Assembly (NCBI GenBank): GCA_014376435.1
Contig: JACMRL010000033.1
Coordinates: forward strand, 62,001 to 126,000
Reading direction: 5' to 3'
Source: Bdellovibrio sp.
Lineage (GTDB): Bacteria > Bdellovibrionota > Bdellovibrionia > Bdellovibrionales > Bdellovibrionaceae
Length of the DNA: 64,000 nucleotides
The notes under the pieces were generated by a model. The model was not told the DNA's origin, made no database searches, and was given only the letters and a program-made list of their open reading frames with translations. How positions within the stretch are numbered: position 1 is the first letter of the stretch; each line of letters opens with the position of its first letter. The translations under genes and the position numbers were made by a program. Below are positions 17,478 through 32,483 of the stretch, piece by piece.

Positions 17478-19880
17478 TTACTTCTTAGAGCCTAATACGG
17501 CTTTTAAAATTTTAAAAGTGCTAATCATGGTTTTTCGCTCGACTTCGCCTTTGCTTGAAAAATCAATCAAAGGTGGTTTTGTACCAATACATGGTAACTT
17601 CCATGCTGGAGTTAAATCATCCTTGGTCGGAGTTCTGCCGTTAAATACTAAGTATACAAATGATTCGCGAATTAGATCTTCTTGTGAGTAACAGCCATAA
17701 ACAGTTTGCGAAAGAAAGCCACTAAACTCATCAATTTGCGCCTTCGCGTTATCCATCGCGTACTTATTCGCAAATGCTTTAAATCGGCCGGCATAAGCTT
17801 CACGAATCTCTTGCGATGAAAAAGCGGCATTTCCATCGGCATCGTAAACTGCATATAATGATTCGATGTAATATAAAATAATCGACATTGAACGTAAATC
17901 AGCGGTTTGAATTTGTGAACCACGATATTTAGCGTCAATACGGGTTACCTCCATCAACTCAAAATAAAACTCCGCAAATTGCGAATCATTCATTTTTTGA
18001 ACATAAGCATTTAACCAAGATAAATTTGAAAAATAGAAACCAAAATTTCTTTTTATATCAAGAACGGCGCAAGCTTCTGAATTCCAAGGAAAACCAAATA
18101 CATCTAATTCTTTTAAGTTACACTGCGCGCGAGCCAGACCAGCTTGAATTTCCGTTAAGGTTTCGCCGCCGCCCGATACTAACATATTCACATACTGAAT
18201 CGATTCTAAAAATCCCATTTTACTGTCACCATTTGCAGAGTAAGTCAGTAAATCAGCTTGCTTAAAACTTTCCGAGCCCGCATTCATCGAGCGTGGATCA
18301 AAAGCCTTACTTTCAATACCAAAATCTTTAAATTCTGCATACCACTGAATTAAGCCTTCTTCCGTCATAAATGAATGAGCAATTTCTTTCGAAGCGTATC
18401 CCGTTGGATTAGCTACGGTTACCGGTGAAATTCCCCAACCAATTAATAATTCGCGGGCTAACATCTTTGTGTAAAATCCACGAGCCAAGTCTGCCCAATT
18501 TTGATCCCATACGCTTTGGTTGGCCGCGATAACCATCTTTTTAAAGCGGTAAACCACTGGGCGAGAGCCTAAAAATTCACTTTTTAATTCTTCAAAGCCG
18601 TTTAAGATCTTTATCTGCTCAGGTTTATCAAAAGGCTTTAAGATAAACTCTAAAGTTTTCGGATCAAAGCTTTTCAGGCTAGTTTGAATTTTATGAATCG
18701 GCACACGTTGTTCATTGGTGCTTACTTGATCAATAAAATTCATGTAAAGGCGGTAAATCGCGACCTCACGTTTAATATTCGAAAAATGCACTTGAGTTAA
18801 ACCCGTTAATTTATTTAATTCGCCCGTACGTCCCGAATCAAAAACGCGCACAATCAACATTTTATAAAAATTAATCAAAGTAGGTCCGGAAATACTAACT
18901 GGTAAAATATTCTGCTTCGCTATTTCTTCGACCACTGGATCTAATGTATCTAATGAAATAAGTTGTTTATTTTTGTACTGAACTGAATTTTCTAAAAGAA
19001 TCAGCCAACTTTGGATATACTCAATCGCTTCGTTCATGCCATCTTTCGACACGATCTCAAAGTGAATCGTGCCTTGAACTTGAGTGGCGTAAAGGCGCAG
19101 TACTTCAGTTAAATTATCTACGAAAAGAAAATAATCGGCTTCCGTTTGTAAAACGTATTTTCCCACTAAAATATTTTTAATTTTGGTGGCTAATTGTAAT
19201 AGATCGTTTGACTCGGCTTCAATCATACTCAAATTAGTAACTAAACGCTTAAAATCATCAAACTGATAGTCTGAACGGGCGACATTGGTTACTTTTAATA
19301 AGTTTTTAAGTGACATATTTAACTGCGCAAATGCATCGCGGAGAAGTGCTTTTGAATAAGCCGTGGTACCTTTTTTAAAGTTAAATATTTTAGCGTAAGG
19401 AATCAAAGACTTTAACTCTGGCTTTAAAACCATTAAAAAATTTCTCAAATCACTGATTTCTATTTTAGTTATTTTTTGATTACTTCCGCCTAAAACAGCT
19501 GCTTTAAGCAACAGTAAGTCTACCGACGAGTCTTTCGAAATTTGCGCATCTTGAATGAAGCTATTAAAAATTTCGTATAGATCATCCGAGCTAAACGACT
19601 GTGCATCCTGACGGCCTTCAACGCGGTTTTGAAATTCATTTAAAGTTTGATCTAAGCAAGTAAAGCTTTGGTCAATATCTTTCGGGTTCGATTCTGATTT
19701 TAAAAAAGTTTTGAATTGAACGGCGACTTCTTTCAGGCAACTTAATGATTCTTTATTAACAAATAAGGTGTCTTTTTTCTCAGGTTTTCCACGTAAAAAA
19801 TCGGTACAACCGGAAAATTGCAGACTGATTCCTAGAATCAGTATCATCTTTACACCATCGTTCAGCATTCTAGATATCAT
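17478..19880 (-). CDS. Large EF-hand lipoprotein, second gene of a duplicated barrel/lipoprotein module (copy A)
   Basis: 800 aa, with a lipoprotein leader and lipobox FSGC at Cys25. Mostly helical, with conserved Cys residues shortly after the leader (SCLKEV, SFTCLDQT). Near the C terminus is a textbook EF-hand calcium loop, DADGNAAFSSQE at residues 680-691, and 132 residues earlier a degenerate one, SANGDSKMGFLE (548-559, with N3, D5 and E12). The end carries FNGRTP. The same blocks occur in the 999-aa protein at 27924-30923 (loops 129 residues apart, GRPP block), so the two are paralogues. It overlaps the upstream barrel gene by 11 nt and has GGAG 6 nt before its ATG. A cell-surface or outer-membrane partner of that barrel is likely; the function is unknown. 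Confidence 0.8.
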   Translation of the reverse strand: MISRMLNDGVKMILILGISLQFSGCTDFLRGKPEKKDTLFVNKESLSCLKEVAVQFKTFLKSESNPKDIDQSFTCLDQTLNEFQNRVEGRQDAQSFSSDDLYEIFNSFIQDAQISKDSSVDLLLLKAAVLGGSNQKITKIEISDLRNFLMVLKPELKSLIPYAKIFNFKKGTTAYSKALLRDAFAQLNMSLKNLLKVTNVARSDYQFDDFKRLVTNLSMIEAESNDLLQLATKIKNILVGKYVLQTEADYFLFVDNLTEVLRLYATQVQGTIHFEIVSKDGMNEAIEYIQSWLILLENSVQYKNKQLISLDTLDPVVEEIAKQNILPVSISGPTLINFYKMLIVRVFDSGRTGELNKLTGLTQVHFSNIKREVAIYRLYMNFIDQVSTNEQRVPIHKIQTSLKSFDPKTLEFILKPFDKPEQIKILNGFEELKSEFLGSRPVVYRFKKMVIAANQSVWDQNWADLARGFYTKMLARELLIGWGISPVTVANPTGYASKEIAHSFMTEEGLIQWYAEFKDFGIESKAFDPRSMNAGSESFKQADLLTYSANGDSKMGFLESIQYVNMLVSGGGETLTEIQAGLARAQCNLKELDVFGFPWNSEACAVLDIKRNFGFYFSNLSWLNAYVQKMNDSQFAEFYFELMEVTRIDAKYRGSQIQTADLRSMSIILYYIESLYAVYDADGNAAFSSQEIREAYAGRFKAFANKYAMDNAKAQIDEFSGFLSQTVYGCYSQEDLIRESFVYLVFNGRTPTKDDLTPAWKLPCIGTKPPLIDFSSKGEVERKTMISTFKILKAVLGSKK

Positions 19881-21189
19881 AACCAGCTCCGATCCAAACT
19901 TGATCTAAATTTCGATAAGATCCCATATTCGACAGCGTTTTATCCGCGGTCTCAATCAGGATAACGTCAGCCCAAAAAGACCATGGGCCACGAATATCGA
20001 GTCTGTTTTTAAAACGTAATTCAGTAAACTCATCCTTTGTACTTTGTCTCCATTGTACCCCCGACTCCAGCAAGATTTTTTTATAGAGAATATCTCTGTA
20101 TGTAACATTTAGCTGAGCGGCTTGGCGAAATAAAAACCTTTGCGTTAATGAAGCCCGGTCAGCCGATACGTCGGGACCACTTTCTTTTACTTCTCCGCCG
20201 ATCGTATCTAAATATGAAATCCCAAACTGAAATGGTCTAATGTTGTAAACAAATTTAGGACCAAAACTGATACTTTCATCTAAAATTGGCACACTGTAAC
20301 CGGGCTGAAAATCAGGCGTTTGCGGCTTGGTATACAATACAGAAAACTGCGCTAAGCCCCAACTGTCGCGGTAGCCAAGGTCTGCTGAATAAATATTTTC
20401 TAAATAAACTTTCGGCGTTACGTCAACGCGAACACGCGTCGTTACTAAAACTGGTTTGTAAGCTAAAGCTAACTGATGCGCTGGTTTAAATGAACCCGCG
20501 ACATTCGTGAAAAAACCTTTGCGCTCGCCTAAACGTAAGCTGGCGGAATAAACTTGTTGAAAGATAACATCACTGGTTTCGGGACGATGAATATTATAAT
20601 CAATCGGAAAAAGTTGACCTTGAAATCGAATGTTCTGCGGAGGGTTTGAAAACCATGGATTACTACGCTCAAATTGTCCGTCTTTTAATTCATAACCCGG
20701 GCCTTGATCAGGTACATAAACTGGTGAAGCAAATAAAGTTAATCCCCAAATAGGCTCATTACGCTCCCAAAAAATACCCGTTAATCCCTGGTTCTCAGGA
20801 TTGATCGGATTCCAACGGAATTGGGGTTGGTAAAAACCTAAATTCCAGTCTGAATCAAGCGAGGACCAATTAAATAATTTACGACCTACATGAATTTTTG
20901 AATTTGAATCGATTTGGTAGGTAAAATAAATTTCGCGAATATTTAAATAACTTAGAACCGACTGTCCAACGGCGTATACTCCCGTTAAATTAAGCATGAA
21001 TAAGTCCGGATTATTGTGGTCTGAAGCTAACGTAGCCCCCACAAAACCGAAGCTTTTCTTATCGGTATTTTCGTAATCAGGGCTTAAAAAAGAAAGGCTA
21101 TCAAGCTGCAAGGTTGTTTTAATTTCAGAACGAGACACCACCGCAAAACAAAGAATGATTAAAACGAAAAGAGATTTGGTGATGTTCAT
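19870..21189 (-). CDS. Outer-membrane beta-barrel protein, first gene of the duplicated module (copy A)
   Basis: About 439 aa with a signal peptide (MNITKSLFVLIILCFAVVS, then RSE). The body is a long series of amphipathic strands (IREIYFTYQID, KIHVGRKLFNW, FGPKFVYNIRPFQFGISYL) typical of a 16-18-strand barrel, ending GAGYDI. It aligns with the 480-aa protein at 30913-32352 through a shared SNPWFSNPP / SNRWAKRPP region, a following F.GQ segment with I.Y.I spacing, and a GGE(V/I)K block. The internal start at 21189 is chosen for the signal peptide; an ATG at 21198 is also in frame. Followed with an 11-nt overlap by its lipoprotein partner. Divergent from the LPS heptosyltransferase gene with a ~130-nt promoter region. 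Confidence 0.75.
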   Translation of the reverse strand: MNITKSLFVLIILCFAVVSRSEIKTTLQLDSLSFLSPDYENTDKKSFGFVGATLASDHNNPDLFMLNLTGVYAVGQSVLSYLNIREIYFTYQIDSNSKIHVGRKLFNWSSLDSDWNLGFYQPQFRWNPINPENQGLTGIFWERNEPIWGLTLFASPVYVPDQGPGYELKDGQFERSNPWFSNPPQNIRFQGQLFPIDYNIHRPETSDVIFQQVYSASLRLGERKGFFTNVAGSFKPAHQLALAYKPVLVTTRVRVDVTPKVYLENIYSADLGYRDSWGLAQFSVLYTKPQTPDFQPGYSVPILDESISFGPKFVYNIRPFQFGISYLDTIGGEVKESGPDVSADRASLTQRFLFRQAAQLNVTYRDILYKKILLESGVQWRQSTKDEFTELRFKNRLDIRGPWSFWADVILIETADKTLSNMGSYRNLDQVWIGAGYDI

Positions 21190-21321
21190 ACAACTCATCT
21201 ATACAAGCCCCGTGCCTTAGAAAAAGCACCGGCGCCAATGTAGTAGCTTTAATGAGCCTTTTACGGGGGTTAGACTGCTAACTCTAGACACCTGCCAGAT
21301 TTTGTAAATATCATAACTAAT

Positions 21322-22311
21322 ATGAAAGTTCTGATTATCCGTTTTTCAAGTATTGGTGATGTCACTCAAGCCCTAAGCATCCCAAGCCTTATCAAGGCTT
21401 ATTTGCCAACGGCTGAAATACATTTTGTCACACGTGAAGATCTTGCATCTTTAGCAGCAAATCATCCCGCCATCGAACACGTTTGGAAATTAGATCGCAA
21501 AACAGGTTTTGCAGGATTACTTAAATTAACTAAAGAATTACGCGCGCAAAAATTTACTCATCTTTACGATGCACATAATAATTTACGTTCATTTTTAATT
21601 CGTACTTTGCTTTTTACTCCGCAAACCTTGGTTAAACCAATGATGCGCTTTAAAAGATTTTTATTAGTTCGCTTTCAAAAGAATTTATTTGAAAAGCCTT
21701 TTTCTGGACAACGCGATTTATTAAAACCTTTAGAAAAATGGAATCTTAAATTTTTTCTTCCACCTGCGCCGCAACTTTATTTAGATGAAAAAGCCAAGAC
21801 CTACGCTAATCAGGTTTATCATGATTTTAAAATCAAAGATGCAATCGTTTTAGCTCCATCGGCTTCTTACGCGCTAAAACGCTGGCCACTCGAATACTGG
21901 CACCAGTTGATTCAAAGTTTACCGGCGCAAAAATTTATTGTCTTAGCGGGTCCGCAAGATACTTTTACCGAAGAATTAAATATTCATCAGAACGTAATTA
22001 ATCTAACGGGCAAATCGAACTTAACTGAATCGGCCGCCTTGATTGAAAAATCAAAATTATTAGTCAGTAACGATACTGGTTTATTACACTTTGCCGAGCA
22101 AATGGGAAAACCGGCTATTGCCTTCATGGGTCCGGCGCCTTTTGGGTTCCCGTCGCGCCCCTCCACTTTAATATTAGAACGTGATTTAAAATGCCGGCCC
22201 TGCAGTAAACACGGGCAAGGGCCATGCGTAAATCCAAATTTTCAAGACTGTTTACGCTCAATCACACCCAACGAAGTGACGCAAAAAATTAAAGGAATAC
22301 TGTCTCGATGA
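21322..22311 (+). CDS. Glycosyltransferase family 9 (LPS heptosyltransferase-like)
   Basis: Transfers heptose from ADP-heptose to the LPS inner core. It has the N-terminal GT9 hallmark IIRFSSIGDVTQALSIP, and a C-terminal nucleotide-sugar site LLVSNDTGLLHFAEQMGKP followed by AFMGPAPFG. The Cys-rich segment CRPCSKHGQGPC and NPNFQDCLRSITP is typical of WaaF/WaaC relatives. Overlaps waaA by 4 nt (ATGA), a shared LPS-core operon. WaaC versus WaaF cannot be decided by eye. Confidence 0.88.
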   Translation: MKVLIIRFSSIGDVTQALSIPSLIKAYLPTAEIHFVTREDLASLAANHPAIEHVWKLDRKTGFAGLLKLTKELRAQKFTHLYDAHNNLRSFLIRTLLFTPQTLVKPMMRFKRFLLVRFQKNLFEKPFSGQRDLLKPLEKWNLKFFLPPAPQLYLDEKAKTYANQVYHDFKIKDAIVLAPSASYALKRWPLEYWHQLIQSLPAQKFIVLAGPQDTFTEELNIHQNVINLTGKSNLTESAALIEKSKLLVSNDTGLLHFAEQMGKPAIAFMGPAPFGFPSRPSTLILERDLKCRPCSKHGQGPCVNPNFQDCLRSITPNEVTQKIKGILSR

Positions 22312-23540
22312 TTTATTTTTACCGCATTATTTTTTCTATTCTAAAAGTCATCGTTTTATTATTAAAGCCTTTTTTAAATTCTAAAATGAAGAAATGGGTT
22401 CAATTACGTGAAGCCGGTCCAACTTTAAAAAATTCGCTTAAAAAAAGTTTTTGGTTTCACGCTTCAAGCGGTGAAATTGAATACGTCAAATCAGTTATTT
22501 TAGAGATTAAAAAAAGAAACCCTGCTGCAAACATTGTCGTAACTTACTCTTCTCCATCGGCCGAGAAATTATTCGAAAACATTAAACCTTATGTTACAGA
22601 GTTCAAAGCCTTGCCTTGGGATCAACCAACCGCACTTAAAAAATTAATTACTTCCATTGACCCGCAGGTGCTGATTTTTTCGCGCACTGATTTTTGGCCG
22701 GAATTAATCTGGCAAACCCAACAGCAACAAATTCCTACGTGCATCGTTTCTTATTTTGGCCAAATGTCGTTTTCCAGACAGATTTTAGCCAAATGGTTAT
22801 TTAAAAAAATTAATTTTATTTCCTGCGTGGAAAGCCTAACCGCTAACAAACTTAAATCGCTTTTACCGTCTCGGGTGCACATCAGTGCGGACGGCGACAC
22901 CCGCTTTGACCAAGTTTTTTGGCGCCTTGAACAAAAATCAAAAGTGAATTTGCAACCAACCCGACCCATCTTTATTTGCGGTTCGACTTGGTCAGAAGAC
23001 GAAGACCAGCTAGGTCATGTATTTACGCAATTATTAAAAAATAATTATCAAATTATTTGGAGCCCGCATGAAGTTGGAGCCGCGAATATCCAAAGAATTG
23101 TTCAAAAAATTAAAATGTCGGCGCGGTCTTACCAACTGCTTTCACGCGAAAACAAAGATGATCTATGTTTTACGGCGGATTTTTTAGTCGTGGATCAGAT
23201 TGGCTATTTGGCCGATCTTTACCGTTATGCCGAAATCGCCTTCGTCGGCGGATCATTTAAAGAAAAAGTGCACTCCGTCATGGAGCCTTTATGCTGCGGG
23301 CTGCCGGTTTTGGTGGGGCCCTATTTTAAAAATAATCCCGAAGCCATTAAGTATGTTACAAATTCCCATCCGAAAGTTTTATACGTTGCTAAAGATACGG
23401 CCGAGCTTTGGCAAGGCATTGAGCAAATTAGAAGTGCCCGGGATAACTTCAAAGAAAATATTAGAAATTTGATGAAAGTGAACCAACACTCGACTAAAAA
23501 AATCGTCGACACTATTCAAGACAACGTTCTAAAAAGTTAA
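22308..23540 (+). CDS. waaA: 3-deoxy-D-manno-octulosonic acid (Kdo) transferase
   Basis: Adds Kdo from CMP-Kdo to lipid IVA at the inner membrane. It has an N-terminal membrane anchor (IFSILKVIVLLLKPFL), then family motifs: FWFHASSGEIEYVK (in place of the usual HxxSVGE), FSRTDFWPELIW, GDTRFDQVFWR, GSTWSEDEDQL, AFVGGSFKEKVHSVMEP and GPYFKNNPEA. 410 aa, normal for GT30. Coupled to the upstream heptosyltransferase by an ATGA overlap, and its 3' end overlaps the convergent BtuF-like gene by 29 nt. Confidence 0.92.
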   Translation: MIYFYRIIFSILKVIVLLLKPFLNSKMKKWVQLREAGPTLKNSLKKSFWFHASSGEIEYVKSVILEIKKRNPAANIVVTYSSPSAEKLFENIKPYVTEFKALPWDQPTALKKLITSIDPQVLIFSRTDFWPELIWQTQQQQIPTCIVSYFGQMSFSRQILAKWLFKKINFISCVESLTANKLKSLLPSRVHISADGDTRFDQVFWRLEQKSKVNLQPTRPIFICGSTWSEDEDQLGHVFTQLLKNNYQIIWSPHEVGAANIQRIVQKIKMSARSYQLLSRENKDDLCFTADFLVVDQIGYLADLYRYAEIAFVGGSFKEKVHSVMEPLCCGLPVLVGPYFKNNPEAIKYVTNSHPKVLYVAKDTAELWQGIEQIRSARDNFKENIRNLMKVNQHSTKKIVDTIQDNVLKS

Positions 23541-24249
23541 GATTACGTATTCCGTACCAGCTTAATTTTTCACCGTCGACTAATGCCCCATGCATCCCCC
23601 GCTGCTTCAGCGAATCAAAGTGTTTTGCAAAAGGGTAAGGCTCACTAGAGAATAAACAAAAACTCTTTTTTAAATCGGCTTCACTAACCTTAGGATATTT
23701 TTCTTCGCGTATCAGCTCAATACCGCCAAATTTCAAATTTTCAGCAATAAAAGTATTTTTTCCTATCACCATAAAAGGTTTGCGCCAAATAACATAATCA
23801 ACGGGTGATTGGCTTGTTAATCTTTCCCCAAGTATAAAAATTTGTTGCCAGAATTTTTCTTTATTTATTTTTTGTAAATTTAATTTCTGATAACGCCCGG
23901 CCATTTGAATTAATTTCTCATTACTTAGCGCTTCACCTAAAGTAATTAAAAAATCTTCCACGCTTTGTAAATCGGTGACATTAGATATCAACAATGAAAT
24001 ATGATTCCGCTTTAGCTCTTCCGCCATTTCCAGTTTATTTTCCTGCTCGTCTAAGATAACGAAATCGGGCTTCAACTGAAGAATTTTTTCTAAGTTCATA
24101 TTCTTGGTACCGCCGACCTTCGATATGCTTGAAATTTTATCAATGGGATGAATACAAAACTGTGTGCACCCCACCACTAAAACTCCTGCTTCCAGCAAGG
24201 TTTCGGTCCACGAGGGCACTAAGCTAATAATACGGGCCTTTTCACTCAT
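23512..24249 (-). CDS. BtuF-like cobalamin/metallophore-binding protein without signal peptide
   Basis: Resembles the two-lobed substrate-binding proteins of B12 and siderophore ABC importers: IISLVPSWTETLLEAG and GCTQFCIHP at the start, VGGTKNMNLEKILQLKPDFVI, then a long helix and a second lobe ending SWYGIRNLNFLE. It starts directly at the first lobe with no export signal, like a cytoplasmic subgroup often annotated as cobalamin-binding protein. No btuC or btuD is nearby. The ATG at 24249 is preferred over an adjacent TTG. Ligand unproven. Confidence 0.72.
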   Translation of the reverse strand: MSEKARIISLVPSWTETLLEAGVLVVGCTQFCIHPIDKISSISKVGGTKNMNLEKILQLKPDFVILDEQENKLEMAEELKRNHISLLISNVTDLQSVEDFLITLGEALSNEKLIQMAGRYQKLNLQKINKEKFWQQIFILGERLTSQSPVDYVIWRKPFMVIGKNTFIAENLKFGGIELIREEKYPKVSEADLKKSFCLFSSEPYPFAKHFDSLKQRGMHGALVDGEKLSWYGIRNLNFLERCLE

Positions 24250-24326
24250 CAACCAATCGTGTCAAAGGACTGTTAGTTGAGTCAACAAGCGGTCTTGGGT
24301 TAAGCTCGGAAAAAATAAGGAAGTCT

Positions 24327-25622
24327 ATGAGCTTATTCTACCCGGTTCGTCAAAAGCCTGCGCCGCATACTTTTCAAAAAGGCGATGTGCTTGTTTTATT
24401 CGGAGAACTTTTTAACCGTGGCTACGCGAATGGTTTAGTCGAAGAAGCCACCACCCATGGCATGACGATCATTCGCGCCACCGTAGGCCGCCGTGATGAG
24501 AATAATCAGTTGCGCGCCTTAACTGCGGAAGAATCTGAAAATATTCCTAAACCATTTATTAATATTCCCCTTGAAGCCGGTTTCGATTTAGAAACCGACG
24601 ATCATGGTAAAACTCCAAATGATTATTTAAAAAATGTAAAGTTAAGTGACTGGCAATCCGCACGTATTTCCGCTTCTAGCTTAGCCGTTAGCCGAGAAAA
24701 GGGCCGTATTCGCTTTCGTGCCCAGACACAAAAATTTTTAGCTGAACTTGAAAAACACATTCTTCCGGGCCGCCATGTTCACTTTGCACATTTAATGGCC
24801 GGGGGAGTTCCCCGTTGTAAAATTGTGATGCCTTTGATGAACCGCGTATTTAAAGGTATCGGCGACCGCTTTATTGCGTCTGAAACTTTTTGGACCAGCG
24901 GCATCGGCAAAGTTTTAGAAATGAACTTTCACGAAGTGACCGCCGAAACTTTCAATATCTTGATCACCGAATCAACAGCTTTGCGTGAAAAAATTAAATC
25001 ACAAAATGGCCACGTTAGCTATGTTGCCTACGGCTACCACGGCACCGAAACTTTAGTGAACAATCAACTTCAGTGGCAAGGCTATGCGCCCTACATCCAA
25101 GCTTGGGCTAAATTATCCCTGGAAGATTATTCAACCGAGTGGAGCAAAAAAGGGATTCACAGTTGCATTTACAACTGTCCAGAAATTTTGACGAATTCAA
25201 GTTCATTGTTTCAAGGCTTAGAAATTCCGCTTTATAATTTAATTCGCTCATTCGATAAAGAAAATCCGAATCATCCAATCACTCAAAAAATGAAAGTTGA
25301 ATGCAAAGAAGTTTTGAAAGACGATGTGTCGTTAGATGATGTTTACAAACTAGTCGACCACTTTCTAAATGCACCCGAAACTAAAAACATGGGGAAATTA
25401 AATTGCTGGCCTCAGCATTCGACCAAAGAACAGCTTGCGATTACTTTACGGACTTCAGATCAAATCATCGCTTTACACAAAGATGAAAAAAAATTGATGA
25501 CCAATAACTTAAGTGAGCTGATTTTCAGAGCTTGCGGTTACATTATGTTGCACGATGGCTACGCACCGAAACATTCGGTAGCTTGGATTGGCCACGATGC
25601 CGTCGTTAAAACTTTAATCTAA
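24327..25622 (+). CDS. Rossmann-like oxidoreductase-type protein (possibly FabMG-family enoyl reductase)
   Basis: 431 aa, soluble. The N terminus has a dinucleotide-binding flavour (GDVLVLFGELFNRGYANGL, then an Arg-rich VGRRD), and the mid-section has HFAHLMAGGVPRCKIVMP and YVAYGYHGTE. These suggest a divergent short-chain-dehydrogenase fold. I have a weak recollection of proteins like this being annotated as FabMG-family enoyl-ACP reductases, and give no symbol for that reason. An AATAAGGAAGTCT ribosome-binding site precedes the ATG. The next gene, a P-loop protein, follows after 19 nt, and both seem to be one operon. Confidence 0.6.
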   Translation: MSLFYPVRQKPAPHTFQKGDVLVLFGELFNRGYANGLVEEATTHGMTIIRATVGRRDENNQLRALTAEESENIPKPFINIPLEAGFDLETDDHGKTPNDYLKNVKLSDWQSARISASSLAVSREKGRIRFRAQTQKFLAELEKHILPGRHVHFAHLMAGGVPRCKIVMPLMNRVFKGIGDRFIASETFWTSGIGKVLEMNFHEVTAETFNILITESTALREKIKSQNGHVSYVAYGYHGTETLVNNQLQWQGYAPYIQAWAKLSLEDYSTEWSKKGIHSCIYNCPEILTNSSSLFQGLEIPLYNLIRSFDKENPNHPITQKMKVECKEVLKDDVSLDDVYKLVDHFLNAPETKNMGKLNCWPQHSTKEQLAITLRTSDQIIALHKDEKKLMTNNLSELIFRACGYIMLHDGYAPKHSVAWIGHDAVVKTLI

Positions 25623-25641
25623 CAACGGAAGGAATATTTGT

Positions 25642-26235
25642 ATGTCGCGAAAAATTGCAATCACGGGCGGACCTTCGGGCGGAAAAACCACTTTGATCGA
25701 TGCGCTGAAACAAACCTTCGGTTCGAAAGTTAAAGTAGTTCCCGAAGCAGCTTCGATTCTTTACAAAGGCGGCTTCCCGCGTGCGAAAGATTACAATGGC
25801 TACTATCACGCACAAAAAGCCATCTTTGCTACGCAACGTGAACTTGAAGAATTACGTACAAAAACTCACCCTGATGCTTTGATCGTGTGTGACCGCGGTT
25901 CATTAGATTCATTGGCTTATTGGCCAGATACGGAAGAGCATTTTTATAAAACTCTCAACACCGATCGTAAAACCGAAATAGCCCGTTATGATTGGGTCAT
26001 TCACTTAGATACGGCCACCGAAACCGACTACGACACTTCAAATGATATTCGCACGGAAAATTTTCACGAAGCTTTATTATTAAATGAAAAAATTAAAAAA
26101 AGCTGGGAAGGTCACCCACAGCGCGTGGTGATTACGGCAGAAAATGATTTCGTGTCGAAAATGAAAAAGGCTACGGCCGTGATCGACGCGATTTTAAATC
26201 AAAAAACGTACGAAGATATCACCTTAATTAAATAA
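25642..26235 (+). CDS. P-loop AAA_28/NadR-like ATPase or kinase
   Basis: 197 aa with Walker A GGPSGGKTTLID at residues 9-20 and a nucleoside-kinase-like CDRGSLDSLAYWPD. The layout matches the AAA_28 group of small P-loop proteins related to nicotinamide-riboside and thymidylate kinases. A GGAAGGAATA ribosome-binding site is clear. Directly downstream of the SDR-like gene (19-nt gap), and convergent with chaN, overlapping it by 12 nt. Substrate unknown. Confidence 0.75.
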   Translation: MSRKIAITGGPSGGKTTLIDALKQTFGSKVKVVPEAASILYKGGFPRAKDYNGYYHAQKAIFATQRELEELRTKTHPDALIVCDRGSLDSLAYWPDTEEHFYKTLNTDRKTEIARYDWVIHLDTATETDYDTSNDIRTENFHEALLLNEKIKKSWEGHPQRVVITAENDFVSKMKKATAVIDAILNQKTYEDITLIK

Positions 26236-27093
26236 TGAAGGTTTTGATATCCAGATAAAATCAGCGCGCGGACCTTCCACCAATGAAGGTTGCATTTCTG
26301 CTTGAATATCTTCATTGGTATAACCTTCGGCCCAAATTTGCGAAATGGTACGAATTGAAATTGTAGGCTGGCGCTGATGAATTCTCCAAGCTAACCCACC
26401 GCCAAATTGCGCGTGAAATTCTCCAACGACAATAACTAATACCTGCTCGGGATGCTGTTTTAAAAATTGCACTGCGGTCCATGCCATCGTGTCGTCCCAA
26501 GAAGATTGCGCCATAAAACAACGGTCTAAACTTGGACAGTGTGCCCCCGCGGCCGCCGCAAATCTTTCTTTGTATGAATCACGTCCAACTTTAAAATCAG
26601 GGGGGAGCATTTGTAATTCAGACTCAGTTAAACTTTCAATTCCCATTTTAGAAATTTTAGAACTGATCGCGCGCGGTAAATTAAGCGCGATCGAAAATTC
26701 ACCGCGACTTGCTTCCGGAAATAATAATTGTTGTTTGTAGAAATCAAAATTAAAACCTTGTTGCCAAGCGACTTTCGCTAAAAAATTGGTTTCATTTAAT
26801 GTGCCCGCTACGTATTGATCGACAATTGCTTGATCGGGGTAATTCAAAAACTCTAGCCCCACTGAAACAGATAGGCTCTGCTTACGAAGTTGATTTAAAA
26901 TCAGCATATGTTGCGCTTGGTGGGCCACCATGCCATGGCTTTCACCCAAGATAACAATCGACCCAGGCTGAACATCAGTTAACGCCTGCTGTAGAGTGGC
27001 TTCTTGCAGGGTGGTCCCTTGATAAATTTGGGCATTTAAAGTCAAAAAACTAAAAAATGTTGTTATAAATAGCAAAAAACTTGGATTACGCAC
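26224..27093 (-). CDS. ChaN/Tiki-like haem-binding-fold exported protein
   Basis: Shows the ChaN (cofactor-haem-binding) pattern: IVILGESHGMVAHQAQHMLIL with the His/Glu cluster, VSVGLEFLNYPDQ, WQQGFNFDFY, and VLVIVVGEFHAQFGGGLAWRI near the end. It has a signal peptide (LLFITTFFSFLTLNA, then Q) with no lipobox Cys. ChaN proteins bind haem and are implicated in iron acquisition; relatives include Tiki metalloproteases, which share the GxxH...GxxH layout. No Fur-type palindrome is visible in its 84-nt upstream region, and no receptor gene is adjacent. Confidence 0.8.
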   Translation of the reverse strand: MRNPSFLLFITTFFSFLTLNAQIYQGTTLQEATLQQALTDVQPGSIVILGESHGMVAHQAQHMLILNQLRKQSLSVSVGLEFLNYPDQAIVDQYVAGTLNETNFLAKVAWQQGFNFDFYKQQLLFPEASRGEFSIALNLPRAISSKISKMGIESLTESELQMLPPDFKVGRDSYKERFAAAAGAHCPSLDRCFMAQSSWDDTMAWTAVQFLKQHPEQVLVIVVGEFHAQFGGGLAWRIHQRQPTISIRTISQIWAEGYTNEDIQAEMQPSLVEGPRADFIWISKPSLFN

Positions 27094-27177
27094 GATGCAC
27101 CCCCGGACTTACGTATATTCCATTGACTAGGCGCTGTAAACTTACTTATATTCGTTCTTTCATTATTGAGGTGTCTT

Positions 27178-27357
27178 ATGGCAAAAAAATCGGGTCGAAT
27201 TATCGTAACTTTGGAGTGCACTGAAGCAAAAGCTGCAGGTAAACCAGTATCTCGTTACACGACAACTAAAAACAAAACTAAAACTCCGGGTCGTCTTGAG
27301 AAAAAGAAATACAATCCAAACATGCAGAAACATACTGTTCACCGCGAAACTAAATAG
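27178..27357 (+). CDS. rpmG: 50S ribosomal protein L33 (zinc-ribbon residues lost)
   Basis: 59 aa. The second half is a good L33 match: [20 protein letters not shown] and KHTVHRETK. The N terminus has VTLECTEA, recalling the VTLACTEC of zinc-type L33. Only that one Cys survives, and the downstream pair is replaced by Asn and Met in [10 protein letters not shown], so this copy should not bind zinc. The ATG at 27178 follows TTGAGGTGTCTT; the frame runs back to a TTG that overlaps the ribosome-binding site. dcd starts 9 nt later. Confidence 0.93.
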
Positions 27358-27365
27358 TTCTAGCG

Positions 27366-27902
27366 ATGATTCTAACAGATAAAGAAATTCTGAATCATAT
27401 GGAAAAAGGGCTCATCAAAGTGGAGCCCTTTCGTTTATCTTGTCTTGGCACAAACTCATACGATGTTCACTTAGGTAAAACCTTAGCGACTTACGAATCT
27501 GATGTTCTCGATGCAAAAGCTCACAATAAAATTAAAACTTTTGAAATTCCACTAGAAGGCTTCGTATTAATGCCGACCGCGTTCTACTTGGGCGTTACCG
27601 AAGAATATACTGAGACCCTAGCGCATGTTCCTTTTTTAGAAGGTAAATCAAGCGTTGGCCGTTTAGGAATCGATATCCACGCAACGGCCGGCAAAGGTGA
27701 CGTTGGATTTTGTAATCATTGGACCTTAGAGATTTCAGTTAAGCAGCCCGTGCGCGTTTACGCCGGAATGCCAATCGGTCAGTTGATTTACTTCGAAACC
27801 AAAGGCGAGATCGAAAATATGTACAACAAAAAAGCCAGCGCTAAGTACAATACTAAAACAACTCTACCGGTCGAGTCGATGATGTTTAAGAACAAGTTTT
27901 AA
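27366..27902 (+). CDS. dcd: dCTP deaminase-type enzyme
   Basis: 178 aa, trimeric dUTPase-fold deaminase supplying dUMP/dUTP for dTTP synthesis. Key segments are FRLSCLGTNSYDVHLG, LEGKSSVGRLGIDIHATAG with the conserved Ser-Arg, GDVGFCNHWTLEI with the catalytic Glu, AGMPIGQLIYF and KYNTKTT. The spacing follows Dcd more than Dut. Bifunctional dCTP deaminase/dUTPase activity is possible and cannot be judged here. Coupled with rpmG upstream. Confidence 0.88.
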   Translation: MILTDKEILNHMEKGLIKVEPFRLSCLGTNSYDVHLGKTLATYESDVLDAKAHNKIKTFEIPLEGFVLMPTAFYLGVTEEYTETLAHVPFLEGKSSVGRLGIDIHATAGKGDVGFCNHWTLEISVKQPVRVYAGMPIGQLIYFETKGEIENMYNKKASAKYNTKTTLPVESMMFKNKF

Positions 27903-27923
27903 TACTTTATTAAATACGAAATT

Positions 27924-30923
27924 TTAATTTGTTACTAACGGAGCCGGTGTAACAACCGGCTTTGTTGCGTCTGCGATATAGTTAAAGATCTTACCTAAAT
28001 CTACGCGTGTACTTTGAATGTCCCAACCCTTTTGATCTTTGTCGCGGATAAATGCCACGAACTTTAATAGCTCGCCTAAGTTCTTAGGATTTGGCGGACG
28101 TCCAAATTTTAAAATATAAATAAATACGCCCGGCAGGTCTTCTTCTTTAATTTGTTTATACGATGCCACAAGCTGTTTCAGTAGACTCTTAAAGACAGGG
28201 AACGCGTGCATAGCTTCGTTTTTTTGTAAAAAGCCATCTTTATTCAGGTCATGGGTCGCAAAAATCATTTCGATATACTGAACCACGTGCGGAAATAAAT
28301 TCGCATCGGTAAAATAAATAATCTGTTGGTCATTCGGCACATGCCCGGCTGCTTTTAATAAACTTAAATAGTAAGCCTTCATTTCATCCGGCTTAAATTT
28401 CGTGCGCATATCTAAAAAAATTGGCATATCTAAAAATGCGTCGGTCTCTTGCTGATAAATATTCAAGACACAATCTTCTCCTACGCCCAAAACGCGTTGA
28501 TTGGGTGCCAAAAATAATGGGGGGCAATTCGCATTAATTTTTTGTTTAACAACATTCGCGCGTTCAACTCCAGAAAGGATATGTAAAATCAGCTGATGTA
28601 GCTCACCTAAGTCGGCTAAACTATCACCATTTGAAGTAGCCAAAAACAAATTGGCTTCGCGAAAGCGAGAAGAAATAAATGTGGTGTTCGATTCCTCGAT
28701 GATTTCAAAGTCTACGGCCGCTGGCTTCAGTTGAGCGTAAACGAATTCAGACTCGGGTAACAACAATCCGCCAAAGGCAGTTGCGCGGTCCAGATCCTCT
28801 GCATAACCTTGAATAACCAAACGTGAAATTGCTAATGCAATATTAGATTTTGCCAAATCGGTATAACGATAGAAATTTGAATCCGGACTTAGAATTTTTA
28901 AAAAGCCTTGATCATTAAAAGTTAATGGCACGGCCTGATTAACAAATTGCTTCAACTGAGTTAGCCCCATAATTTCAGCGGCATCAGAAGCTTTTCCTAG
29001 ACGCAAGTTTAGCTCGGCTAATAAATCTTTTTGTTCGATGCGATCTGTATTCTCAAATATTTCTGAAATATTTTTTTGATTTTTTAAAAAGAAAAAAACT
29101 TCTTTTGAAAGCTGATCTAACGTGATCTGGTTAAAACCGATTTGCGCAATCTGATCTTTGATACGCGATTCGGGATTATTTAAAATATTGCTCCACAGAG
29201 CGTTAAAAAGAGAGGTTAGGCTGCTTTCACGAAATTTAGCACTTAGGTACTTTTCTTTTTGCAAAGTTAGCACCAGATCCGTAAGCTCTTCCGTCGATAG
29301 AAAATGCGTGTATTTTTGTTTTAACTCGGTCAAGAGAGTATCTTTAACTTTAGGCCATAAACGAATTAAATTTTTGCTGTAGCGAACGTCTTTCATTTCG
29401 TACTGGGCTAAGAATAAAGAATATTCTGCATAATTTAAGTACGCGCGAATCCCCACGTTGAATAAAACTTTTAGATTGTCCGGAGTTAGAATTGAACTTT
29501 TTTGTCCGGTTAACAGAGTTTTACCTGATAAGGCGACATTAAATATTGCGTCTAGATCTTTGGGAATTGTAGCGTTACCTTTCAACAGAGTAAGAGCTAA
29601 ATTTTTAATCAAACTTTTTAAAGATTGTATATCGTAAGCCCCCTCAAGCAAATGTCCGACTTCATAAATAGCCAATAACAGCTTTGTTTCGTTAGTGGTA
29701 AATTCAGGATAAGTAATGAGCCCCTGGTTTTTCAGTGAAAGACCATCGAACTGCTTAAAAATAATTGATAAGTTTTTAAACAAATCCGGGATTTTTTTAT
29801 CTAATGCGATAAAGTCGGAATGCGACCAGCCACGATTACCTAAAGCACTTTTACCTAAAAGCATTATCTTAAGGTCGCCAAGACCTTTTAAAAGTTCAAG
29901 ATTCACTTCAATTTGTGGAATAATTTCTGAGAGCGGCTGAAGTAGATCGTAGATTTCGTCGTTCGTTAAAGATTGAGTCTCTTTAGCTTTAAGTAATGTC
30001 TCGACTAACAAACTTAGATCTAAAGCAATTTTTCGGTAGAAAGACCATTTCTCTTCGACTTGCTCATTATGCAAAGGATCTAAAAAGTATTTATAACGTA
30101 AAGCCTGAAAGTAAGCTTCGCTTAAAGTGAGTCCTAGTTTTTTCCAGTCGTCTCCGCGAATTGAAGATGTTCCACCGATCAAATGTTGTTTAAACTTTTT
30201 CAAGAAAACGCGCGATTTTTGGATGGTCGTAATTGTTTTTTCAGAACTATTGACAAACTTTGCAGTCTCGGTAATTAGTTCGATTAAATGATCAATTTGG
30301 TAAGCACGACCGCCCGATTCAAACTCACCCAGAAATTTTAAAGTAAAATGCCGGAATTCATCTTTAGCTGATTGAAAACGTTCCTCATTATTTTGTGAGG
30401 TTGCAGAATCGCCTTCTATTTTCCATTGCATCGCAATGATTTTCATGTGCGGGTTTAAACGTATTAAATCTGGTTTTAAACGAGCCATAAAGCTAGCGAC
30501 CTGATCAATCTCTTGCTTCTGAATAAGGACTTCACTACCGCCAAATAGCACGACTTTAAACTTCATAACTTGCGCTAAAAACTGTGGACTGATCTTTGTA
30601 CCATCTGCAAAAAAATTGGCTTCTACGAAATTAACAATTTCTTGCGGAGTAAATGAATCTTTATTTTGCCCGCGAATGTTATCTTTAAACGCGACAAAAA
30701 CGTTTTGTAAACAAAACAAAGACTGCTCGACAGCTTCATCCGTCGCATCACCTAACAAAAATAACTGAAAATCACTAATCGATTGATTTAAGCATTGCGA
30801 ACTTTTGACTTTTGCCGACACTTCGGTATCTTTTGCTTTTTCTCCGATCTTAATTCCGCAGCCACTCATGATAAGGTTCATCGCGACGAGTACCGATAAA
30901 ATATACTTTGTTTTAGAAAACAT
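27924..30923 (-). CDS. Very large EF-hand lipoprotein, second gene of the duplicated module (copy B)
   Basis: 999 aa, lipobox MSGC at Cys22. Largely helical with no known enzymatic motif. The C-terminal third holds a perfect EF-hand calcium loop, DLNKDGFLQKNE (residues 892-903), and a degenerate partner TSNGDSLADLGE (763-774) 129 residues earlier. The terminal FGRPPNPKNL block and a LFGGSEVLIQKQEI block near residue 130 match copy A's FNGRTPTKDDL and LGGSNQKITKIEI. Copy A is 199 residues shorter, with the difference in the middle. Its ATG overlaps the stop of the upstream barrel by 11 nt, the same geometry as copy A. Probably an outer-membrane-anchored partner of that barrel, with calcium a structural or sensing ligand. 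Confidence 0.8.
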   Translation of the reverse strand: MFSKTKYILSVLVAMNLIMSGCGIKIGEKAKDTEVSAKVKSSQCLNQSISDFQLFLLGDATDEAVEQSLFCLQNVFVAFKDNIRGQNKDSFTPQEIVNFVEANFFADGTKISPQFLAQVMKFKVVLFGGSEVLIQKQEIDQVASFMARLKPDLIRLNPHMKIIAMQWKIEGDSATSQNNEERFQSAKDEFRHFTLKFLGEFESGGRAYQIDHLIELITETAKFVNSSEKTITTIQKSRVFLKKFKQHLIGGTSSIRGDDWKKLGLTLSEAYFQALRYKYFLDPLHNEQVEEKWSFYRKIALDLSLLVETLLKAKETQSLTNDEIYDLLQPLSEIIPQIEVNLELLKGLGDLKIMLLGKSALGNRGWSHSDFIALDKKIPDLFKNLSIIFKQFDGLSLKNQGLITYPEFTTNETKLLLAIYEVGHLLEGAYDIQSLKSLIKNLALTLLKGNATIPKDLDAIFNVALSGKTLLTGQKSSILTPDNLKVLFNVGIRAYLNYAEYSLFLAQYEMKDVRYSKNLIRLWPKVKDTLLTELKQKYTHFLSTEELTDLVLTLQKEKYLSAKFRESSLTSLFNALWSNILNNPESRIKDQIAQIGFNQITLDQLSKEVFFFLKNQKNISEIFENTDRIEQKDLLAELNLRLGKASDAAEIMGLTQLKQFVNQAVPLTFNDQGFLKILSPDSNFYRYTDLAKSNIALAISRLVIQGYAEDLDRATAFGGLLLPESEFVYAQLKPAAVDFEIIEESNTTFISSRFREANLFLATSNGDSLADLGELHQLILHILSGVERANVVKQKINANCPPLFLAPNQRVLGVGEDCVLNIYQQETDAFLDMPIFLDMRTKFKPDEMKAYYLSLLKAAGHVPNDQQIIYFTDANLFPHVVQYIEMIFATHDLNKDGFLQKNEAMHAFPVFKSLLKQLVASYKQIKEEDLPGVFIYILKFGRPPNPKNLGELLKFVAFIRDKDQKGWDIQSTRVDLGKIFNYIADATKPVVTPAPLVTN
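27942..27961 (+). terminator. Possible weak terminator after dcd
   Basis: AGCCGGT (27942-27948) and ACCGGCT (27955-27961) form a 7-bp GC-rich stem with a 6-nt loop, 40 nt after the dcd stop. It lies within the last codons of the convergent lipoprotein gene. The T-run after it is broken (TTGTTG), so termination efficiency is doubtful. Confidence 0.4.
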
Positions 30924-32352
30924 ATTTTACCCCGGCATAAAAGCGATCATTCGCTTGGTTCTGGCTCAGGAAATTTTCTGGCGCATCCGCTGGAAGTTCA
31001 TTTTCAGTTCCCAATAAGTCAAGGCCCGCTTGTAAGTAAAGCTTTTTCCAAGTCTCGTGCATTAGCTTAGCCGACAATAACGAGCCTTTAAATTCGCGGT
31101 CGTAAGTCCAAGACACTGTCGTGATTAACGGACGCTCGCCGAAGAAAATAGAATCTCCGGTAAAACCTAAAGTAACCGGGCTTTTAAAAATTGTACGATT
31201 AGCAGAAAAAGTGAAAATACTTACTTTACCGCCCTGCATTTTATCTTTTATTTCTCCGCCGCGCATTTCTGCCGCGGCTAAACTGATTAAAAAATTTCTC
31301 GAGATGTAATCTTTAAGGTCTAATGCAAAATAAACCGCATAAACTTTTAGAGGATTTAATACCTGCAAAGTTTCATCCATGAAAGGTTCGTTATTAAATG
31401 GTTGATCTTCTAAATAAGAAAAAGTTGATTTAAGCAAGCGTCCGTCTAAATTGATGTCGGCCGATTTAACCTCGTGGTAGGTCACCACCGGAGCTAAAAA
31501 TACGTGGCCAGTAAAGTCGTTAATTGTTCCGTAAGTTTCACGCGTTAGCGGAATTTCGTTCAAAGGATGGCGAGCATACGAAACTTGTAACCACGGTCGT
31601 TCGACATTCTCACCCACAAACAAACTTAAAGTATGCCCTTGATTCGTAATAATTTTTTCTACGTCATACGCGCGAATAACATATTCAATTCTTTTATCTT
31701 GTCCTTGTACAAATTCAAAACGCTTAGGCGGGCGTTTGGCCCAACGATTCGAAGAAACAATACTACCGTCTTGTTCATGGATTTCGGGCCCTTGATTTTT
31801 TAAGAAAACAGGTTGAAAGCCACCTTTAAATCCAAAGTACCCCTGATGTACTTGCAACTGAATTCCTGCAAAACCTTGCTCTTTGTAATCGATAAAGTCG
31901 TTGGTAAAATAAGATTCGTAAAGCCCTAAGTGATAATATCGATCTACAAAACTAAACGATTGAGTTTTAATTCCTAAAGCTAGGTAATTTGATTTTAATG
32001 AACCCACAGCCAAATAGGCATCAGGTACAGGAATATACACGCTGCGTGAACCAGAGAATGATCCCACCGTTAATTCTAAATCGGCAAATAAAAAACCCTG
32101 TTTTTTTAAGCCTAACATCAGCTCGACTTGCCCTTGTGAAGCATCATCGGCGACTGAACCCGCGGCGTAGTTCAATGATTTTAGTTCCAGACTTAGTTTA
32201 GGCTGAACGGAAGATTTTGTTTCCGCCGGTTGAATCTTTTCAATCGAGGTCGAAAAATTCTGCGCAACGGCTGGTTGCAGCAAAAAAACGCAGGCTAAAA
32301 ATAAGTCCCGAATCGGATTGAAAAAGACTAATCTTTTATACATCCTCCACAT
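30913..32352 (-). CDS. Outer-membrane beta-barrel protein, first gene of the duplicated module (copy B)
   Basis: About 479 aa. A signal peptide (LFLACVFLLQPAVAQ) is followed by a short Ser/Glu linker and then amphipathic strands through to a C-terminal aromatic (GVKYVF), the barrel signature recognised by BAM. It shares SNRWAKRPP, an F-GQ segment and a GGEIKD block with the barrel of copy A, and the two proteins are close in length. It precedes its lipoprotein with an 11-nt overlap. The start at 32352 (ATG) is one of three clustered candidates; an ATG at 32343 sits right after GGAGG. Confidence 0.75.
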   Translation of the reverse strand: MWRMYKRLVFFNPIRDLFLACVFLLQPAVAQNFSTSIEKIQPAETKSSVQPKLSLELKSLNYAAGSVADDASQGQVELMLGLKKQGFLFADLELTVGSFSGSRSVYIPVPDAYLAVGSLKSNYLALGIKTQSFSFVDRYYHLGLYESYFTNDFIDYKEQGFAGIQLQVHQGYFGFKGGFQPVFLKNQGPEIHEQDGSIVSSNRWAKRPPKRFEFVQGQDKRIEYVIRAYDVEKIITNQGHTLSLFVGENVERPWLQVSYARHPLNEIPLTRETYGTINDFTGHVFLAPVVTYHEVKSADINLDGRLLKSTFSYLEDQPFNNEPFMDETLQVLNPLKVYAVYFALDLKDYISRNFLISLAAAEMRGGEIKDKMQGGKVSIFTFSANRTIFKSPVTLGFTGDSIFFGERPLITTVSWTYDREFKGSLLSAKLMHETWKKLYLQAGLDLLGTENELPADAPENFLSQNQANDRFYAGVKYVF

Positions 32353-32483
32353 CAAACCCGAAGCCTATTTATCAGTCAACGTAATGCAGCAGAATGACAA
32401 TTCTGCTAATAGGATTTGTAATAAATTCCAATTAGAAATCAAATAGATTGCAAATGATACTTTAGCGAAAAATAGGAGTGTTT

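What the first reader, a model, noticed from the sequence alone, without database searches (positions are those of the whole stretch)
17478..32352. A duplicated two-gene module: outer-membrane barrel followed by a giant lipoprotein
19870-21189/17478-19880 and 30913-32352/27924-30923 are both barrel-then-lipoprotein pairs on the minus strand. Both pairs overlap by exactly 11 nt, the barrels share SNxWxxxPP and GGE(I/V)K blocks, and the lipoproteins share several blocks including GRxP near the end. Only about 7 kb of unrelated plus- and minus-strand genes separates them. Neither protein matches a family I know. A barrel plus a surface lipoprotein, duplicated and diverged, suggests a secretion, adhesion or nutrient-uptake device with two substrates. 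This is my leading candidate for an undescribed system.
Basis: partly seen in the sequence, partly recalled or inferred. Interest (0 to 1): 0.78.

Follow-up and report, generated by a model that had tools for sequence, protein, structure and literature searches.

The report
Duplicated outer-membrane barrel and EF-hand lipoprotein
Bacteria of the Bdellovibrio group carry a little-noticed pair of genes, a likely outer-membrane channel and a very large lipid-anchored helper protein that probably binds calcium; the pair is kept together in most sampled genomes of the phylum and present twice here, which suggests a conserved envelope machine of unknown cargo.

Summary
The barrels are homologous (26% identity, E 5e-19), as are the lipoproteins (E 6e-13); both pairs overlap by exactly 11 nt. 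The genome has just these two copies. The duplication is old: A and B clades recur in other genera, with congruent barrel and lipoprotein trees.

Of 290 phylum genomes, 227 have both proteins, 3 only the barrel, 1 only the lipoprotein, 59 neither. The pair stays adjacent in three arrangements. In 48 of 52 collinear pairs the lipoprotein ATG lies exactly 11 nt inside the barrel gene, after a Shine-Dalgarno-like core in 47; both counts are 0 of 13 in divergent pairs. So the barrel's C-terminal beta-signal doubles as a start site.

The window's four proteins match no Pfam or NCBIfam family above cut-off. The barrel models as an AlgE/OprD-class porin. The lipoprotein models as all-helical, with two conserved EF-hand loops and a 230-residue unit, once in A, twice in B.

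Best reading: a translationally coupled outer-membrane transport complex, resembling AlgE-AlgK in architecture but with an EF-hand scaffold instead of TPRs. Complex formation, cargo and direction are inferred. A gliding role was tested and not supported.

The parts
19870..21198 (-). Barrel A: outer-membrane beta-barrel, 442 aa, N-terminal signal-peptide-like helix, C-terminal ...GAGYDI
   Evidence: AF2 pLDDT 85.5, pTM 0.81; fold matches to AlgE and OprD-class porins; family profile found in 230 of 290 phylum genomes
17478..19880 (-). Lipoprotein A: 800 aa, lipobox Cys25, all-helical model, two EF-hand loops, one 230-aa-type unit
   Evidence: AF2 pLDDT 82.5, pTM 0.78; weak fold matches mostly to EF-hand proteins; Cys25 in 79 of 79 relatives
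19870..19880 (-). 11-nt overlap A: end of barrel (Tyr-Asp-Ile-stop) contains the lipoprotein ATG; GGAG lies upstream inside the barrel gene
   Evidence: ATG at this place in 48 of 52 collinear pairs, 0 of 13 divergent pairs
30913..32355 (-). Barrel B: paralogous barrel, 480 aa, C-terminal ...GVKYVF
   Evidence: 26% identity to barrel A, E 5e-19
27924..30923 (-). Lipoprotein B: 999 aa, paralogue of A with two repeat units
30913..30923 (-). 11-nt overlap B (barrel Tyr-Val-Phe-stop contains the lipoprotein ATG)
20776..20886 (-). Barrel A residues 105-141: conserved segment GRKxxxWSxLD...QGLTG, between strands 5 and 6; probably an inward-folded extracellular loop (L3) by porin topology
   Evidence: G105 and G141 invariant in 27 sequences; strand limits; the topology is inference
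20638..20724 (-). Barrel A residues 159-187: second conserved segment (P..DQGP ... NPWFxxPP)
31864..31974 (-). Barrel B residues 128-164: the same segment, motif degraded (GIKTQSFSFVD in place of GRKxxxWSxLD)
18204..18239 (-). Lipoprotein A EF-hand loop 1 (residues 548-559, SANGDSKMGFLE)
   Evidence: position 12 Glu in 77 of 79, position 3 Asn/Asp in 72 of 79; position 1 rarely acidic
17808..17843 (-). Lipoprotein A EF-hand loop 2 (residues 680-691, DADGNAAFSSQE)
   Evidence: position 1 Asp in 79 of 79, position 12 Glu in 77 of 79; profile match to PDB EF-hand proteins E 1.2e-4
28602..28637 (-). Lipoprotein B EF-hand loop 1 (residues 763-774, TSNGDSLADLGE)
   Evidence: aligned with loop 1 of A
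28215..28250 (-). Lipoprotein B EF-hand loop 2 (residues 892-903, DLNKDGFLQKNE)
   Evidence: pattern match; sub-threshold Pfam EF-hand at 884-908
29928..30617 (-). Lipoprotein B repeat unit 1 (residues 103-332)
   Evidence: E 5e-78 to a unit profile that includes it; unit 1 against unit 2 of seven B lipoproteins: hhalign probability 99.8% over 218 columns
29253..29927 (-). Lipoprotein B repeat unit 2 (residues 333-557)
   Evidence: E 3e-63 to a unit profile that includes it
19167..19565 (-). Lipoprotein A single repeat unit (detectable part, residues 106-238)
   Evidence: E 3e-13 to a profile built from B units only
15314..17451 (-). Possible accessory genes downstream of A: MFS transporter (16303-17451) and a 340-aa probable outer-membrane protein (15314-16336)
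   Evidence: each recurs beside module A in 8 genomes among the loci clustered; MFS_1 hit, no Pfam hit for the 340-aa protein; membership of the system is inference

Best explanation
The pair is a two-subunit outer-membrane transport complex, present as two diverged copies. The barrel is a selective channel of the AlgE/OprD/MOMP porin class; its most conserved segments probably form inward-folded extracellular loops that set selectivity. The lipoprotein is a lipid-anchored, all-helical scaffold built of one, two or perhaps three 230-residue units plus a C-terminal head with two EF-hand loops; two cysteine pairs are conserved. It probably docks on the periplasmic mouth of the barrel and guides cargo between the channel and the periplasm, stabilised by calcium. 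Translation is coupled: the barrel's C-terminal beta-signal (GxxY[VDA][FI]-stop) contains both the ribosome site and the start codon of the lipoprotein, so the subunits are made together. Copies A and B have kept their own partners since an ancient duplication and probably serve different cargo. Shown: homology, duplication, coupling signature in the sequence, co-occurrence, barrel fold class, EF-hand loops, repeats. Inferred: physical complex, periplasmic side, channel function, direction, cargo, calcium binding, and that the helical units outside the two loops are degenerate EF-hands.
Confidence: 0.45

Rival explanations
1. Envelope tether: the barrel is only an anchor and the long lipoprotein holds the outer membrane to the wall or organises the surface, like the porin-PapS complex of Rhodospirillum rubrum. 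Repeat number would set the reach.
For: Repeat number varies: one, two, and in L288 perhaps three, the third weak, as a spacer would; lipoprotein-only loci exist; a porin-lipoprotein structural complex has precedent (passages read in PMC11369160).
Against: No peptidoglycan-binding or OmpA-like family among the matches of 33 lipoproteins at E 0.01, whereas PapS needs such a domain; the most conserved barrel residues lie in probable pore or extracellular loops, not what a mere anchor needs.
Confidence: 0.2
2. Surface receptor or adhesin: the lipoprotein is flipped to the cell surface, caps the barrel and captures calcium-dependent ligands or prey surfaces (SusD-like or adhesin-like).
For: Conserved barrel segments are probably extracellular (topology inferred); calcium loops suit an extracellular protein; the family occurs in a phylum with many predators.
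Against: I know of no surface-export system for such lipoproteins here (recall, not searched); no SusD, TonB-receptor or adhesin family found; localisation was not tested.
Confidence: 0.17
3. Assembly factor: the lipoprotein is a dedicated chaperone or plug for folding its own barrel, as LptE is for LptD (recalled).
For: Translational coupling signature and partner fidelity; near-invariant lipoprotein sites.
Against: Three of the four f10 genomes fetched have two unlinked lipoproteins for one barrel; an assembly factor need not vary in repeat number.
Confidence: 0.1
4. Component of the Glt/Agl gliding machinery.
For: In B. bacteriovorus HD100 a cluster of a VWA-like lipoprotein, a TPR protein and a small OMP lies about 3 kb from barrel A, matching the published gliding cluster Bd2368-2377 (passages in PMC12546842; cluster identity inferred from position and gene content). 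The window's own genome also has a strong match to that TPR protein, on another contig (E 5e-239).
Against: Among the loci held, that neighbourhood was matched only in L301, L293 and L148, although several other A loci reach 5-8 kb upstream. Strong matches to the TPR protein occur without the module (G052 E 1.6e-133, G280 E 5e-67) and the module occurs with only weak matches (G002 8.8e-6, G034 2.1e-5) (a TPR query is partly unspecific). Myxococcus GltA and GltB are small (256 and 275 aa).
Confidence: 0.04

Closest known systems
AlgE-AlgK (alginate export, Pseudomonas)
   Different: About 10% identity, no Pfam match; lipoprotein has EF-hand loops, no TPR match, and reaches about 1200 aa; no polymer synthase among the neighbours scanned; barrel and lipoprotein genes overlap
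OprD/Occ substrate-specific porins
   Different: No sequence family match; Occ porins work without a lipoprotein (recalled)
Por39/Por41-PapS porin-lipoprotein complex (R. rubrum)
   Same: Porin plus outer-membrane lipoprotein acting as a unit (PMC11369160, passages)
   Different: PapS has an OmpA-like wall-binding domain; no such family matched here
PopA (Bd0427), the major OMP of Bdellovibrio
   Same: Outer-membrane barrel of the same phylum
   Different: PopA is a 16-stranded, helix-plugged pentamer of about 350 aa (PMC12228718, abstract, passages and one section); the barrel profile matches no PDB chain convincingly (I did not check that PopA is in that copy)
Eukaryotic EF-hand proteins (calmodulin, calpain PEF, CDPK, ALG-2)
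   Same: Canonical calcium loops; most of the weak fold matches are EF-hand proteins

Membership tests
AlgE-AlgK | 18-stranded barrel of AlgE fold | tested here: inconclusive
   AlgE is the best Foldseek match but OprD-class porins score as high and TM-scores are about 0.5
AlgE-AlgK | Sequence membership in a curated family | tested here: not met
   No Pfam family for 27 barrels at E 0.01; none for the window's two barrels at E 10
AlgE-AlgK | Lipoprotein made of TPR/Sel1 repeats | tested here: not met
   No TPR or Sel1 family among the matches of 33 lipoproteins at E 0.01
AlgE-AlgK | Polymer synthase operon | tested here: inconclusive
   None among the 17 proteins scanned (8 of them window neighbours); not every neighbour was scanned
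EF-hand superfamily (lipoprotein) | 12-residue loop with Asp at 1, Asp/Asn/Ser at 3 and 5, Glu at 12 | tested here: met
   Loop 2: 79/79, 75/79, 73/79, 77/79
EF-hand superfamily (lipoprotein) | Profile match to known EF-hands | tested here: met
   PDB ALG-2 E 1.2e-4; Pfam EF-hand in up to 6 of 33 members, best E 5.8e-5; the window's own proteins stay below the curated cut-off
EF-hand superfamily (lipoprotein) | EF-hand fold through the whole chain | tested here: inconclusive
EF-hand superfamily (lipoprotein) | Binds calcium | not testable with these tools
   needs a binding assay
SusCD-type uptake systems | TonB-dependent barrel with plug, SusD fold | tested here: not met
   No such Pfam hit for 27 barrels or 33 lipoproteins
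PapS-type porin-lipoprotein complex | OmpA-like peptidoglycan-binding domain | tested here: not met
   no such Pfam hit for 33 lipoproteins at E 0.01
PopA superfamily | 16-stranded plugged barrel, radial oligomer | tested here: inconclusive
   no convincing profile match in PDB sequences; oligomeric state not modelled
Glt/Agl gliding machinery | Co-inheritance and linkage with glt/agl genes | tested here: not met
   the TPR query is partly unspecific and the window's genome does hold a strong match elsewhere
Outer-membrane lipoprotein | Lipobox cysteine | tested here: met
   Cys25 in 79 of 79; outer-membrane sorting itself not testable here

The most novel reading that the evidence does not exclude
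A new kind of outer-membrane machine characteristic of Bdellovibrionota: a porin-class channel gated or extended by a calcium-responsive giant EF-hand-array lipoprotein whose length is tuned by repeat number, with the start signal of one subunit written into the membrane-insertion signal of the other, duplicated so that one cell runs two versions, possibly for moving prey-derived material.
Probability: 0.25. Interest if true: 0.82.

Novelty: new variant of a known kind. Interest (0 to 1): 0.6.

Why it matters
A two-protein envelope system found in 227 of 290 sampled genomes of the phylum that holds the best-studied bacterial predators has no family model that its window members match in Pfam or NCBIfam, and turned up in none of my ten literature searches (open-access full text only). 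It points to genes in the model strain B. bacteriovorus HD100 that can be deleted and tested, may bear on how these predators move material across their outer membrane, adds a large lipid-anchored EF-hand protein to bacterial envelope biology, and offers a clear natural case of a beta-barrel C-terminal signal that also encodes a ribosome site and start codon.

Tried and rejected
Gliding machinery (Glt/Agl): raised by the HD100 neighbourhood, not supported. Recent duplication as the cause of the identical 11-nt overlap: rejected, the overlap is family-wide. MFS-acyltransferase-barrel fusion in L277: the ORF runs from an acyltransferase straight into what looks like the barrel's signal peptide, so I take it as a lost or missed stop, not a functional fusion. 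LPS-biosynthesis link (heptosyltransferase and Kdo-transferase next to A): a recurring neighbourhood (16 and 12 genomes), but the B pairs and most other families sit elsewhere, so not used. PopA relationship: no support. Presence outside the phylum could not be tested properly: plasmid records gave no tblastn match for barrel A or lipoprotein A; PDB sequences gave only EF-hand matches and chance helical ones. HD100 locus tags were guessed from position only; literature searches by guessed tags found nothing usable. The first genome-contig scan with barrel B alone found no relative. A multimer model was not available. A family absent from the VIA-align lists is not thereby excluded. Other weak Pfam and NCBIfam matches of the window lipoproteins (NBAS, YgxA-like, MutS_III, borfam_49, ESAT6, all below cut-off) were taken as chance.
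Full report
1. What is there. Two minus-strand gene pairs lie about 7 kb apart. Pair A is barrel A (19870-21198, 442 aa) followed by lipoprotein A (17478-19880, 800 aa). Pair B is barrel B (30913-32355, 480 aa) followed by lipoprotein B (27924-30923, 999 aa). The barrels align at 26% identity over 385 columns, E 5e-19. The lipoproteins align at E 6e-13 over their N-terminal part and E 4e-4 over a C-terminal part. The window's genome has exactly two matches to barrel A and two to lipoprotein A.

2. Whose genome. Genome G122 has one contig of 3,782,950 bases, the length I recall for strain HD100. There the pairs lie at 2265720-2269410 and 2320545-2325027, minus strand. The HD100 identity rests on recall of the length.

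3. Families. Pfam gives nothing above its cut-off for the four window proteins, and a sub-threshold EF-hand in lipoprotein B. NCBIfam gives nothing above cut-off. None of 27 barrels matches a Pfam family at E 0.01. Of 33 lipoproteins up to 6 match an EF-hand model, best E 5.8e-5; single members also matched DUF6240 (1.8e-3) and Endotoxin_N (5.7e-3), which I take as chance. A profile of the lipoproteins matches EF-hand chains in the PDB, best E 1.2e-4 at profile positions 659-691, with a weak second EF-hand match at 534-558 (E 0.17); a few designed or coiled-coil helical chains also appear.

4. Distribution. In 59 genomes (the window's own and 58 relatives of its genus, family and order) the four window proteins hit 48 (barrel A), 49 (lipoprotein A), 47 (lipoprotein B) and 49 (barrel B). 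With family profiles, 230 of 290 genomes sampled evenly from the phylum have the barrel and 228 of 290 have the lipoprotein. Comparing the two listings handle by handle: both in 227, barrel only in G127, G200 and G293, lipoprotein only in G231, neither in 59. G127 shows a weak lipoprotein match beside its barrel when more candidates are scored; the G200 and G293 barrels lie near contig ends; G231 is 72% complete. Absences come together: 17 genomes negative for both were searched with a second lipoprotein profile at E 0.1 and none matched, while G231, the 18th searched, did. These genomes are related, so counts are not independent events. Spread beyond the phylum was not tested except in plasmid records, where tblastn found no match.

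5. Gene arrangement. In 81 stretches (the window and 80 fetched loci, chosen because they had hits, five of them lipoprotein-only outside f10) I found 73 barrels and 79 lipoproteins; 67 barrels have an adjacent lipoprotein. Arrangements: 53 barrel->lipoprotein, 13 divergent (family f18), 1 lipoprotein->barrel (L127). The 6 unpaired barrels are L130, L135, L139 and L144 (family f10, where barrel and lipoproteins are on different contigs) and L295 and L296 (contig ends). Three f4 loci (L134, L138, L143) hold barrel-lipoprotein-barrel-lipoprotein in tandem.

6. The overlap. In 48 of 52 collinear pairs an ATG lies exactly 11 nt before the end of the barrel gene; a Shine-Dalgarno-like core lies just before it in 47 of 52, against 2 of 52 in a window 14 nt further upstream. 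In 13 divergent pairs both counts are 0. In 7 other barrels the ATG count is 0 and the core count 2. One further collinear pair (L290) overlaps by more than 200 nt in my ORF calling and was not among the 52. The reason is visible in the sequence: the C-terminal GxxY[VDA][FI]-stop reads GGN G.. ... TAT GNN TTN TAA, so GGAG falls in the Gly codon and ATG in the Tyr codon. The C-terminal strand is, by general knowledge, what the BAM machine recognises. Where the genes are unlinked or divergent the pattern is lost.

7. History. Trees of 64 barrels and their 64 partner lipoproteins both recover the f1 B group of 10 rows at SH-aLRT 99; the f1 A group of 12 rows has 92 in the barrel tree and 100 in the lipoprotein tree. 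In the lipoprotein tree the f4 copies split, one set nearer B and one nearer A. Distances correlate at 0.917, and 0 of 5000 random partner swaps inside 21 two-module genomes reach that; single swaps lower it in 20 of 21, G076 being the exception. Three fragmentary or odd loci (L277, L290, L292) were left out of the trees. So the pair duplicated as a unit, long ago, and partners were seldom if ever exchanged. Adjacent genes would give this even without physical contact.

10. Function. The coupling signature, co-occurrence, joint absence and partner fidelity argue for one machine. The nearest architecture is AlgE with AlgK, where a helical-repeat lipoprotein is modelled end to end with the barrel on its periplasmic side (PMC9734138, passages). 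I therefore propose a channel with a calcium-binding EF-hand scaffold. Direction and cargo are open. The f10 genomes (one barrel each; two lipoproteins in G046, G051 and G055, one in G058) and the lipoprotein-only loci suggest that several lipoproteins may share a barrel, which fits a scaffold or adapter better than a plug. Rivals are an envelope tether, a surface receptor and an assembly factor.

11. Gliding. In HD100 a probable gliding cluster lies about 3 kb from barrel A. The neighbourhood was matched only in L301, L293 and L148 among the loci held. In 290 genomes strong matches to its TPR protein occur without the module (G052, G280), and the module occurs with only weak matches (G002, G034); the window's own genome does have a strong match on another contig. 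I do not count the pair as part of that machine.

12. Literature. Ten full-text searches in an open-access library listed no paper that I recognised as describing the pair. For PMC12228718 I read the abstract, passages and one section; for PMC6561027, PMC12546842, PMC11369160, PMC2797640, PMC3169522 and PMC9734138 passages only; supplements were not read. PMC12546842 lists an uncharacterised Bd2361 among proteins raised within prey; its relation to these genes is unknown.

Noticed in passing
window 21322-23540: A heptosyltransferase (Glyco_transf_9) and a Kdo-transferase sit head-to-head with module A; clusters of these recur in 16 and 12 genomes among the loci compared.
   Followed up: partly
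window 15314-16336: A 340-aa probable outer-membrane protein with no Pfam family lies downstream of module A and has relatives in the same place in other genomes of the family, including HD100.
   Followed up: partly
window 26224-27093: A ChaN-like haem-binding-uptake protein near module B; its cluster recurs in 12 genomes of the loci compared, beside A, B or f10 barrels.
   Followed up: no
L301 14064-19001: In HD100 a cluster with a VWA-like lipoprotein, TPR protein and small OMP lies about 3 kb from barrel A; likely gliding cluster Bd2368-2377.
   Followed up: yes
L277 2332-5445: One ORF reads from an MFS-acyltransferase (LplT-Aas-like, name recalled) directly into the barrel; probably a lost stop, but it shows a lysophospholipid-type neighbour in family f14.
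   Followed up: partly
L288 2331-5933: A 1200-aa lipoprotein-only locus with two clear and one weak repeat unit and no barrel found beside it.
   Followed up: no
L165 5540-8557: In a same-genus genome (G008) the lipoprotein next to barrel A is 1005 aa, and another lipoprotein of 810 aa lies on a different contig.
   Followed up: no
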